The position numbers and the translations under genes were made by a program. Shown piece after piece: positions 2,700-6,754 of a stretch of 32,490 bases of DNA. This DNA is from Gammaproteobacteria bacterium (GTDB lineage: Bacteria; Pseudomonadota; Gammaproteobacteria; Chromatiales; Chromatiaceae). The stretch lies in contig SLIM01000228.1 in NCBI GenBank assembly GCA_007135625.1, forward strand, positions 1-32,490, written 5' to 3'. Every line of letters begins with the position of its first letter. The first letter of the stretch is position 1. The notes beneath the pieces are model-generated. The model saw only the letters and a program-made list of their open reading frames with translations, did no database searches and was not told where the DNA came from.

Positions 2700-2756
2700 T
2701 TGGAAAAATCGTACTCGGACTTCATGGTTTACCCATGGGATAGAACCCAACTCTGG
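2700..2756 (+). repeat. 57 bp direct repeat, copy A (flanks the ATPase cassette)
   Basis: ttggaaaaatcgtactcggacttcatggtttacccatgggatagaacccaactctgg; 6 mismatches by eye against 6316-6372. Confidence 0.85.
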
Positions 2757-2826
2757 CTACTCGTGCCAAGCATAGTGTATGTATGGCATACCATGAGTTG
2801 TGGGGGATGTTTTGGGGATGAGGGGT

Positions 2827-4314
2827 CTACCGTGGCGGTCGCACCCCGCCTCTGCGCTTGATGCCAAAGCCGACACGAAAAATGTCGGGCATGTTGAATC
2901 GCCCATCTTCGGTGGGATAGAGCACTGCCAGCTCGATGAGGTCGGCTACCAACGCTTCCAACGACCCTTTGCGGATCGGGTCGCTGTCGTAGCGCCGTGG
3001 CGGAAGGCGTTGTCCAGAGCGGGCTGCGGAGAGTGAGGCATCTACGAGACCGGGTATCCAGTTGCTGGTGAGATCATCGAATTTCAGGGGAACCGTCGTA
3101 CCCTGCAGGGACTCCAGGAGCGGCCCGACCCAGGGGTAGTCCTCCTTGATCTCTCGGATGCGGGTGGTGGATGCCTCTGCCACGCCTTGGCGAACGCCGT
3201 CGTAGTGCAGGGCGAATCGATGCTCCGGGTGGTGCGTCTCAGTCCACTCGGCGGCGTGACGCAGGGCAAGGAGGATGCTTCGCGGGCTTAGACGCGCTTT
3301 AGCATCGGAGAGGTGGGTGGGAATCCAGGTGTAGGTGTTGCCTCGGTTGGCCTTCGGCCCGACGAATGGTCCCGCCAAGGCTTCGATCAGGTCACGAAAG
3401 GGCATTCTACGGGGCAACGCATAGATACCATCAATTGCCTGCCATCGGAGGTGGGTTTGGCTCGTCAACTCCTCGCGAAATTCACCGTCCAGCGATGCAT
3501 GATTAGCCAGGAACAGTGCGATCAGTCCGTAGAAATCGTCTGGGCGCCACGCTAGGGTGGCCTTGGAGTGGAGCAGCTTGGAGCTATCGGCGAAGTGCCA
3601 AAGCTCATCCTCCTCTTCAATCATATCGGGACGCAGGAAGAACTTGAAGCGAATGGCACGCCGGGTACGGCACTCCAGACATAGGACGAGCGCGGCCTTG
3701 AGTCGCTCCCGAATGCCTGCCCAATCGTCCGCTAGCCGTTCCAAAGAGTCGAACAACAGCATGAGGGCTTGGCCATTGACTACGAGTTGGCGGTCGATCT
3801 CCGTGATCTGGTCATCTGCTGCATGAGGATTTTGCGAGACCCACTGCGCCGCCGCATCCACTGAGTCCGTGAAGGGTAATGCCATGTCCACGGCCTTTGC
3901 CCCCTGGCGGATCAGCACCGAGCGCCATATTTCGTCCGGGGATATCCCCTGATCCATCCAGGCGGTCATTCGCTTGGCAGTGGGAAATAGCTCGTTGCTG
4001 TTGTCCAGCCCGAAACCGACACGGACGATGACATTATGCAGGGTGTGAATCTTTGCCGACCCGCTGACATACTCGCGTGCCGCTTGGTCGGCCAACACCG
4101 CAGTCCAGAAGCTCTTGCCCGCCCCGCGCATTCCCTCGACCACGCTGACATCCGGGGCAAGGGCCTTGCTATGCATGTCGGGGACGTAGATCTCAGAGCG
4201 CTGGGGTGAGTCGAGCTGCTCCCAGGCGGCGGTCTGCGGCAACGCCATGAGGGCACCGCGATAGGTGAGCGGATCAAAGGTGAATTTCGGTTGAAAATCT
4301 GATCGCTGCGGCAT
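2827..4314 (-). CDS. P-loop ATPase of unknown function (third gene of cassette)
   Basis: 495 aa; Walker A-like GMRGAGKS, Walker B-like ALMLLFDSLERL, C-terminal segment DGRFNMPDIFRVGFGIKRRGGVRPP. Starts 15 nt after the preceding gene. Confidence 0.85.
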   Translation of the reverse strand: MPQRSDFQPKFTFDPLTYRGALMALPQTAAWEQLDSPQRSEIYVPDMHSKALAPDVSVVEGMRGAGKSFWTAVLADQAAREYVSGSAKIHTLHNVIVRVGFGLDNSNELFPTAKRMTAWMDQGISPDEIWRSVLIRQGAKAVDMALPFTDSVDAAAQWVSQNPHAADDQITEIDRQLVVNGQALMLLFDSLERLADDWAGIRERLKAALVLCLECRTRRAIRFKFFLRPDMIEEEDELWHFADSSKLLHSKATLAWRPDDFYGLIALFLANHASLDGEFREELTSQTHLRWQAIDGIYALPRRMPFRDLIEALAGPFVGPKANRGNTYTWIPTHLSDAKARLSPRSILLALRHAAEWTETHHPEHRFALHYDGVRQGVAEASTTRIREIKEDYPWVGPLLESLQGTTVPLKFDDLTSNWIPGLVDASLSAARSGQRLPPRRYDSDPIRKGSLEALVADLIELAVLYPTEDGRFNMPDIFRVGFGIKRRGGVRPPR

Positions 4315-4329
4315 GGCGATTACTCTGGC

Positions 4330-5634
4330 TTAGGCGAATCCATCGGGGAGTAGACGCGCTGTGGCTCCGTTCAGAAACGGCCCAAAGGCGCTCTTGACAA
4401 TGCCCCATTCAGGGAGGGTATTGGAATGGTTCAGCTCAAGCCCGCGTAGCCTGGGGTCGAACCCGATGCGTAAGGGATAATGGGGGGCGGTATCTTCCAT
4501 CATCTCGAACGACTCCATCCCTTTGGGATCGGCCTCTGCATCGTATAATTCGTCAGTCCAGGCCAGAAAGGAGTGCTCCACCAAGCGGCGGGCAGCCGAT
4601 TCTGTCGAGTCCGTCTGCGCCCCTACCATCGTCAGGCGGTGGCGGAGATCATCCTCCTGCATTCCAAAGCTCACCCCTCGGGAGAGGGCTAGTTGCCGAA
4701 AAAGGTGACGATAAGCGGCCCAAGTCTGGGCATCGTCACGGGCGAACAGGAAGACCTCGGCACCCAAACGGGTCACTGCGGCGGAGCCAATGTCGTGCAA
4801 ACCCGCACGTGCATCCAGCAAAACCAATTGAGGTGCCTCGGCCAGTCCTGCAATGGATTCCAGCAGCAGCTTCAGCCGTTCTGCCAGCCCGAAATACGCT
4901 TGGTGTCCCTCAGACCAGGCCGGCAGATAGATACGCCCCAACTTGGCGATGTAGTCACGGCTCTTGCGACCAAAGGCCGGCAGCACGCGCAATCGCCCCG
5001 GCGTGTCTTGAGCCAGGGCGCAATCGACCAAGGTTTCCCGCAACAGGGCATTGTCCACTGCGCCGTTCTGCGCCTCAATCAGCCAGTCGATCAGGCCGTA
5101 GTCCGGGATGTGAGCCTCATCCAGCAAAACACTGGCTACGCCCGGCGCTTCGAGGTCTAGATCGATGAGGAGTACGTCCTTCCCGAGCCGGGCCAGGTGC
5201 CAAGCCCACACTGCGAAGGCTGAGGTACGACCCACCCCTCCTTTGATGCTGAAGGCCACTGCTGTCGGTAGCGGTGGGTGGGTACACAGAGGTGCCCGAA
5301 TCCAGTCCTGATTGGTTTGAAGGCGATCCACTAGCCAGGTAGCGGGAGCATTGGGAATACGGATGCGATCAGGCGAGCGGATTACGTCGTCTGGGTCAAT
5401 GAGATCGCTTTGGCGCAATAGAACCTGTCGCTCTCCCGGGCTAAATCGGCCAAGGGTATTGTGTAGTCGCTGGGCAAGGACATCCCAGTTGCATAGGGTG
5501 GAGTCGGGCAACACCACCGTAAGTACTCCAAAGGGGTCGCGGATCAGCGTAGTTTCCGAGTCAGCATCCCCGAACTCTTGCTGTAGGATCTCGAGTGCGG
5601 AGGGAATGGATTGATCGAATTGTGGCGAAGTCAT
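4330..5634 (-). CDS. MinD/ParA-like ATPase, KGGVGRT variant (second gene of cassette)
   Basis: Likely start ATG 5634-5632 (MTSPQFDQS). FSIKGGVGRTSAFAVWAWHLARLGKDVLLIDLDLEAPG is a deviant Walker A plus Walker A' region; LVLLDARAGLHDIGSAAV is Walker B-like. ATGA overlap with the upstream gene. Confidence 0.92.
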   Translation of the reverse strand: MTSPQFDQSIPSALEILQQEFGDADSETTLIRDPFGVLTVVLPDSTLCNWDVLAQRLHNTLGRFSPGERQVLLRQSDLIDPDDVIRSPDRIRIPNAPATWLVDRLQTNQDWIRAPLCTHPPLPTAVAFSIKGGVGRTSAFAVWAWHLARLGKDVLLIDLDLEAPGVASVLLDEAHIPDYGLIDWLIEAQNGAVDNALLRETLVDCALAQDTPGRLRVLPAFGRKSRDYIAKLGRIYLPAWSEGHQAYFGLAERLKLLLESIAGLAEAPQLVLLDARAGLHDIGSAAVTRLGAEVFLFARDDAQTWAAYRHLFRQLALSRGVSFGMQEDDLRHRLTMVGAQTDSTESAARRLVEHSFLAWTDELYDAEADPKGMESFEMMEDTAPHYPLRIGFDPRLRGLELNHSNTLPEWGIVKSAFGPFLNGATARLLPDGFA

Positions 5635-6035
5635 GGCTGCCGTACCCCGCTGAGTCCAACGGCCCCAAGCAGCCGCTTTGCCCACTCTCGATGTGATTGT
5701 AATTGTTTCGCTCGGATTGCCCCTTCCGCCTCATACCGCTGATCTATCTTCCAGTCGGAAAAAGGATTATTGGACTGAAGAAGGCTAGGGAGGCGCGGAG
5801 CAGCCTTGGCGATGCTTTGATGGCCCGCTTTATCCCAAAGCAGGTTAATGTGGTATTTGAACTCCTTTTGGAGCGATCCATCAGGCGCAAAAAGCGGCAA
5901 TTGAACCAGCACCTTTTTGATCGCACATTCTGCGGCCAGCCCATACAATTGATCGGCGTTCCCGATCCGCCTATGCTCTTCCAGTAGCTGTGCATCCTGC
6001 CAGTGTCGCAACGCGGCCTGCGCGTAATCTTCCAT
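5631..6035 (-). CDS. Small helical protein, possibly HEPN-like (first gene of cassette)
   Basis: Start ATG 6035-6033 preceded by GGAGG Shine-Dalgarno (ccGGAGGacaattgATG). MEDYAQAALRHWQDAQLLEEHRRIGNADQLYGLAAECAIKKVL; stop overlaps the next start (ATGA). Confidence 0.8.
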   Translation of the reverse strand: MEDYAQAALRHWQDAQLLEEHRRIGNADQLYGLAAECAIKKVLVQLPLFAPDGSLQKEFKYHINLLWDKAGHQSIAKAAPRLPSLLQSNNPFSDWKIDQRYEAEGAIRAKQLQSHREWAKRLLGAVGLSGVRQP

Positions 6036-6315: not shown

Positions 6316-6372
6316 TTGGAAAAATCATTCTCGGACTTCATGGCTTACCCTTAGGATAGAACCCGACTCTGG
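6316..6372 (+). repeat. 57 bp direct repeat, copy B (flanks the ATPase cassette)
   Basis: ttggaaaaatcattctcggacttcatggcttacccttaggatagaacccgactctgg; same orientation as copy A. Confidence 0.85.
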
Positions 6373-6379
6373 ATATCGC

Positions 6380-6754
6380 ATTGAGCATTGCGACCACTTT
6401 GGGGACTCCCAGAACTACCTGGAGAGTACCATGTGGGGCGGTTACACCCTGATGCACGAATGGGGGCATTTTGCCTACGGGTTATTTGACGAGTACCAGA
6501 ACAACGATGCGGCGTGTGATTCCGACGATCCGGGTGGCCCCTGCCAATGTGAAGTTCATTGGGAAAATGGTGGGCCGACAGTACCAGCGGCGGCGGCTAC
6601 CCCCTCTGCGTCTAGTTCAGGTGGTGCGCCCCCTGCGCCTGGTGCCAGCGGGGCGCATCCGATTCCGACCCTTGGCCACCTGCCCCTGCTACTACTCTCC
6701 GGGCTGCTTGGGTTGCTGGCGATTCGGCGCTATGCCGTTTTTATGAAACGGTAA
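6380..6754 (+). pseudogene. Truncated CLCA-type metalloprotease remnant fused to an IPTL-CTERM tail
   Basis: In-frame IEHCDHFGDSQNYLESTMWGGYTLMHEWGHFAYGLFDEYQ (HExxH with downstream DE) extends upstream of the only ATG (6431); no ATG/GTG/TTG start upstream before stop at 6266. C-terminal HPIPTLGHLPLLLLSGLLGLLAIRRYAVFMKR resembles IPTL-CTERM. Confidence 0.7.

What the first reader, a model, noticed from the sequence alone, without database searches (positions are those of the whole stretch)
2827..6035. Three-gene ATPase cassette: candidate undescribed conflict/defence system
Sequence: a minus-strand operon with GGAGG-led small helical protein (6035-5631), ATGA-coupled MinD/ParA-like ATPase with KGGVGRT (5634-4330), then 15 nt later a distinct P-loop ATPase with GMRGAGKS (4314-2827). 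No partner expected for chromosome or plasmid partitioning (ParB, parS) or cell division (MinC/E) is present. It sits alone among decayed genes, as accessory islands often do. Inference: two NTPases plus a small putative effector/sensor resemble NTP-dependent conflict systems, but no effector is proven.
Basis: partly seen in the sequence, partly recalled or inferred. Interest (0 to 1): 0.85.

Follow-up and report, generated by a model that had tools for sequence, protein, structure and literature searches.

The report
HEPN plus two-ATPase candidate defence operon
The three genes are an intact copy of PDC-M28, an anti-virus system already listed as a candidate but with no published test that we found; it couples a toxin-like RNA-binding protein to two ATP-driven switch proteins, so it is probably real bacterial immunity of unknown mechanism rather than something undescribed.

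Summary
In detail: three intact, coupled minus-strand genes lie at the stated coordinates. They match, in order and nearly full length, all three components of PADLOC-DB candidate system PDC-M28 (A 2e-37, B 3e-118, C 1.6e-143), so the module is not undescribed; no paper naming PDC-M28 was found. The A-B-C unit is tight: 91 of 100 M28C genes examined have both partners adjacent, and 5 of the 9 exceptions lie at contig ends. The three proteins co-evolve (distance correlations 0.81-0.88). It is patchy and mixed across phyla, occurs on conjugative plasmids beside integrases, and is embedded in BREX operons at three loci. M28A models confidently as a HEPN domain of the AbiV/HEPN-T type: it lacks the classical Rx4-6H motif but keeps Ex3K, an upstream His and an Arg. 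M28B is a ParA-like ATPase whose P-loop lysine is invariably arginine. M28C is an AAA+ ATPase resembling archaeal ORC and BREX BrxC. In one related lineage M28C is fused to a metallophosphoesterase-NACHT pair, the domain pair of the validated defence protein DS-8. Best reading: an NTPase-gated HEPN effector system. Defence function likely; mechanism inferred. Enrichment among ordinary neighbours was not demonstrable.

The parts
5631..6035 (-). M28A: HEPN-fold protein, 134 aa, AbiV/HEPN-T type (E36x3K40, H62, R100-Y101); putative effector
   Evidence: (PDC-M28A 2e-37)
4330..5634 (-). M28B: ParA/MinD-like (SIMIBI) ATPase with KGGVGR variant P-loop, 434 aa
   Evidence: NF047398 4.3e-50; PDC-M28B 3e-118
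2827..4314 (-). M28C: AAA+ P-loop ATPase (Walker A GMRGAGKS; Walker B LMLLFDSLER), ORC/BrxC-like fold, 495 aa
   Evidence: (PDC-M28C 1.6e-143)
5631..5634 (-). ATGA start/stop overlap coupling M28A and M28B
   Evidence: the same 4-nt overlap in 40 of 79 A-B junctions elsewhere
2700..2759 (.). downstream copy of a 60-nt direct repeat bracketing the operon
6316..6375 (.). upstream copy of the 60-nt direct repeat (88% identical)

Best explanation
This is an intact PDC-M28 system: an accessory, horizontally moved anti-invader module. SHOWN by sequence and model: three coupled genes, a HEPN-fold protein, a ParA-like ATPase with an Arg-for-Lys P-loop, and an ORC/BrxC-like AAA+ ATPase, inherited as one unit. 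INFERRED mechanism: M28B and M28C form an NTP-dependent complex that senses an invader or its effect on DNA or replication; nucleotide-driven assembly or disassembly then releases or activates M28A, which acts on RNA (cleavage through the alternative His-Arg pair, or binding without cleavage) and halts growth of the infected cell. Where M28C carries a fused metallophosphoesterase-NACHT module, a second sensor/effector is added to the same switch.
For: All three proteins match PDC-M28A/B/C. In 100 M28C genes, 95 have M28B and 91 have both partners adjacent in order A-B-C; 5 of the 9 exceptions are at contig ends. Distances correlate A-B 0.81, A-C 0.81, B-C 0.875 over 80 loci, against at most 0.12 in shuffles. 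B and C are fused in L035, L052, L087 and L111, pointing to physical contact. M28A: AF2 pLDDT 93.4; the best solved structures are HEPN proteins (2q00, 1wol, 4nqf, 2hsb, 1o3u); 23 of 66 homologues hit Pfam HEPN_AbiV, best 2.7e-5. Its invariant E36x3K40, H62 and R100 fit the alternative active site described for AbiV and AF0298 (PMC3710099). Embedding: between pglX and DUF6079/pglZ of BREX-2 on a Sphaerotilus plasmid, the same partners around it in Thiohalocapsa L117, and directly upstream of pglZ in L106. Plasmid copies lie beside integrases. M28C is fused to Metallophos+NACHT in L044-L048; that phosphoesterase part matches DS9_1_antiphage 6.8e-28 and DS8_antiphage 3e-11, families with tested phage resistance (PMC13092281). 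M28C fold: ORC2 2.4e-7, BrxC 3e-5. Patchy: 24 of 299 genomes of the phylum, 8 of 59 relatives, 0 of 14 controls.
Against: No experiment on any M28 system was found. M28A lacks Rx4-6H, so RNase activity is uncertain. Foldseek E-values for M28A are only 0.1-1 although probabilities reach 1.0. Immediate neighbours are not clearly enriched in defence genes (roughly 10 of 120 against 4-5 of 120 in a control dominated by one BREX locus). In methanotrophs the module sits in a fixed housekeeping place between mnmA and purB. The metallophosphoesterase-NACHT fusions form one clade, hence one event. Bracketing repeats suggest past mobility here but no integrase was seen beside it.
Confidence: 0.55

Rival explanations
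1. Defence system in which the DNA-handling ATPase pair is the active part (M28C loads on or moves along invader DNA, as ORC or BrxC do) and M28A is a structural or adaptor HEPN, not an effector.
For: M28C fold resembles DNA-binding ORC and BrxC; M28A lacks the Rx4-6H motif; embedding in BREX, itself built on BrxC.
Against: M28A keeps an invariant Ex3K/His/Arg set like AbiV, which a mere adaptor would not need; no nuclease or other effector accompanies the ATPases.
Confidence: 0.25
2. Stability or addiction module of plasmids and islands: M28A is a toxin restrained by M28B/C, selected for keeping its own element rather than fighting phage.
For: Plasmid and integrase contexts; HEPN proteins are often toxins (PMC3710099); 60-nt repeats bracket the operon here.
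Against: Many chromosomal copies, including a fixed mnmA-purB site in methanotrophs; embedding in BREX and fusion to a defence-type metallophosphoesterase-NACHT.
Confidence: 0.13
3. Housekeeping or partition function (ParA-like positioning).
For: ParA-like fold; a few fixed chromosomal positions.
Against: The canonical P-loop Lys is replaced by Arg in every aligned M28B; patchy distribution; no constant extra partner gene; two copies of the module in this assembly fall in separate deep clades.
Confidence: 0.07

Closest known systems
PADLOC-DB PDC-M28 (A, B, C), putative defence candidate
   Same: All three proteins, same order, nearly full-length model matches.
   Different: Nothing structural; this is a member. 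The database gives no function, and no paper naming it was found.
AbiV and HEPN-T (AF0298-type) HEPN proteins
   Same: Fold; Ex3K, upstream conserved His, conserved Arg, no Rx4-6H.
   Different: M28A sits in an operon with two ATPases; AbiV is listed without operon partners in PMC3710099.
DS-8 / DS-9 metallophosphoesterase defence proteins (PMC13092281)
   Same: Metallophosphoesterase homology, and the NACHT pairing of DS-8, in the C-terminal fusion of M28C in L044-L048.
   Different: Absent from the window's M28C; scores lie far below the DS-8/DS-9 family cut-offs.
VMAP and related NTP-dependent conflict systems (Kaur et al. 2020, PMC7159879)
   Same: Use of ParA/MinD-like domains predicted inactive alongside STAND-type NTPases.
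   Different: No MoxR, vWA or VMAP component here; gene content differs.
BREX BrxC (PglY) ATPase
   Same: Fold similarity of M28C and physical embedding of the module in BREX operons.
   Different: M28C is 495 aa with its own family; the BREX-2 operon keeps its own BrxC/PglY (DUF6079) beside it.

Membership tests
PDC-M28 | All three component models matched by adjacent genes in one operon | tested here: met
   (2e-37, 3e-118, 1.6e-143)
PDC-M28 | Protection against phage | not testable with these tools
   no experiment found
HEPN superfamily | HEPN fold | tested here: met
   (top solved structures are HEPN, probability 0.75-1.0, though E-values 0.1-1)
HEPN superfamily | Classical RNase motif Rx4-6H | tested here: not met
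   R100 invariant, no conserved H 5-7 residues later
AbiV / AF0298-type HEPN | Conserved upstream His plus Arg in place of Rx4-6H; Ex3[KR] | tested here: met
   invariants E36, K40, H62, R100; description; spatial closeness of H62 and R100 not measured
ParA/MinD partition or division ATPases | Deviant Walker A with catalytic Lys (KGGxGK[ST]) | tested here: not met
   KGGVGR[ST], Arg invariant
ParA/MinD partition or division ATPases | Partner ParB/parS or MinC/E in the operon | tested here: not met
   the partners are M28A and M28C in 91 of 100 loci; no genome-wide ParB search done
STAND/NACHT NTPase | NACHT or other STAND domain above curated cut-off in M28C | tested here: not met
   NACHT 13.9 bits against cut-off 26.7; fold nearer ORC/BrxC

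The most novel reading that the evidence does not exclude
A modular ternary immune switch: a ParA-like pseudo- or slow ATPase and an ORC/BrxC-like AAA+ ATPase together gate an AbiV-type HEPN effector, and the AAA+ arm can accept further sensor/effector units such as metallophosphoesterase-NACHT. Such gating of a HEPN effector by a SIMIBI-AAA+ pair would be a mechanism not described for any validated defence system known to us.
Probability: 0.3. Interest if true: 0.65.

Novelty: new member of a known kind. Interest (0 to 1): 0.42.

Why it matters
PDC-M28 is widespread (the single genome scan gave loci from Pseudomonadota, Acidobacteriota, Chloroflexota, Nitrospirota, Planctomycetota and others), tightly linked and catalogued, yet no test was found. 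The fold of its small protein, the natural embedding in BREX and the fusion to a DS-8-like module give testable residues (M28A H62, R100; M28B R136; M28C K67) and small natural constructs of about 3.3 kb.

Tried and rejected
Undescribed system: rejected by PADLOC PDC-M28. Partition/division ATPase: rejected (see membership test). Defence-island enrichment among immediate neighbours: tested with a control, not demonstrable. A constant fourth partner gene: none found. Phage carriage: no match in 50,697 phage records; the viral-contig scan failed three times with a machine error, so proviral carriage was not assessed. E. coli genomes: no near-identical copy of the Enterobacter plasmid version. 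Literature searches for a validated HEPN + ParA-like + AAA system found none.

Full report
OBSERVATION. The three ORFs are as described: 6035-5631, 5634-4330 and 4314-2827 on the minus strand, with a GGAGG before the first, a 4-nt ATGA overlap between the first two and 15 nt before the third. They lie between an intact katG and an intact gdhA, with only a fragment bearing an IPTL-CTERM signal and a small ORF nearby. A 60-nt direct repeat, 88% identical, brackets the operon and is found nowhere else in the 2.8-Mb assembly. GC content is not unusual.

IDENTITY. PADLOC-DB 2.0.0 matches all three proteins along nearly their whole length: PDC-M28A 2e-37, PDC-M28B 3e-118, PDC-M28C 1.6e-143. NCBIfam calls the second a KGGVGR-motif variant AAA ATPase (4.3e-50) and places the third below the cut-off of the Sll1717 P-loop ATPase family. 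No paper in the held library names PDC-M28; [quoted passage not shown] So the module is a catalogued but apparently untested candidate.

MODULE. A search of 299 genomes of the phylum found M28C in 24 (0 of 14 control genomes), and in 8 of 59 relatives including this genome: patchy, not core. One scan of GTDB representatives gave 79 loci from many phyla. In 100 M28C genes examined, 95 have M28B and 91 have both M28A and M28B adjacent in order A-B-C; 5 of the 9 exceptions sit at contig ends. B-C junctions are within 20 nt in 79 of 80 cases and A-B in 77 of 79, counted from the upstream-most start codon, which favours overlap. Pairwise distances correlate (A-B 0.81, A-C 0.81, B-C 0.875; shuffles at most 0.12), so the genes travel together. 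The M28C tree mixes phyla: the window's copy falls in a starred clade with a Thermodesulfobacteriota sequence, and a second copy in the same genome (C56) lies in a different deep clade. B and C are fused in some loci, including a third, divergent copy in this genome.

PROTEINS. M28A: AlphaFold2 on 66 homologues gives pLDDT 93.4; the best Foldseek matches in the PDB are HEPN proteins, probability up to 1.0 with E-values of 0.1 to 1; 23 of 66 homologues match HEPN_AbiV. The classical Rx4-6H is absent, but E36x3K40, H62 and R100 are invariant, which fits the alternative active site described for AbiV and AF0298 (PMC3710099). M28B: ParA/MinD-like with the P-loop lysine replaced by arginine in every aligned member; the ParA/MinD-like domains of VMAP conflict systems are likewise predicted inactive (PMC7159879). 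M28C: canonical Walker A; pLDDT 93.2; structural neighbours archaeal ORC2 and ORC1, BrxC of BREX and Paby2304.

CONTEXT. On a Sphaerotilus plasmid M28ABC lies on one strand between pglX and DUF6079/pglZ of BREX-2. The same three BREX genes flank it in Thiohalocapsa L117, although an unrelated minus-strand ORF intervenes there. In L106 a pglZ gene follows M28C directly. Other plasmid copies lie beside integrases in Paraburkholderia, Enterobacter (conjugative IncF) and Agrobacterium. In one lineage M28C is fused to Metallophos plus NACHT; the phosphoesterase part resembles those of DS-9 and DS-8, for which loss of the catalytic residues abolished phage defence (PMC13092281). These fusions form one clade, so they count as a single event. 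A neighbour survey found roughly 10 of 120 defence-like proteins against 4-5 of 120 in a control drawn from other genomes, which is not a convincing enrichment; and in methanotrophs the module sits between mnmA and purB.

MECHANISM. Best supported: a nucleotide-switched complex of M28B and M28C restrains or triggers a HEPN effector. Co-inheritance and context are shown and the folds are confidently modelled; sensing, release and RNA targeting are inferred. Rivals are an ATPase-centred defence with M28A as adaptor, an addiction module, and housekeeping.

VERDICT. Real, intact and probably immune, but a new copy of an already catalogued candidate. What is added here is the AbiV-type HEPN assignment of M28A, the invariant Lys-to-Arg change in M28B, the BREX embedding and the metallophosphoesterase-NACHT fusion.

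Noticed in passing
window 2700-2759 and 6316-6375: 60-nt direct repeat, 88% identical, bracketing the operon and unique to these two places in the assembly; on the minus strand both copies contain ATGAAGTCCGAG..., the start of a short antitoxin-like reading frame.
   Followed up: partly
own genome C56 (L034) and C93 (L035): Two more M28-type loci in the same genome: a complete A-B-C operon from a separate deep clade, and a divergent B-C fusion of 888 aa with a HEPN-like gene upstream.
   Followed up: partly
L044, L045, L046, L047, L048: M28C fused to metallophosphoesterase + NACHT; L044, L045 and L048 also carry low-complexity runs of ARD/ARY-type repeats towards the C-terminus.
   Followed up: partly
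L086, L090, L093, L105: In methanotrophs the module sits by mnmA and purB, a fixed place in a housekeeping neighbourhood, unusual for a defence module.
   Followed up: no
L173:2593-3105: A DUF6650 protein, a domain newly linked to defence in PMC13092281, lies beside an integrase and M28ABC on plasmid pOLGA3.
   Followed up: no
window 6431-6754: Fragment with a HEWGH metalloprotease-like motif and an IPTL-CTERM sorting signal: remnant of a surface protein.
   Followed up: no
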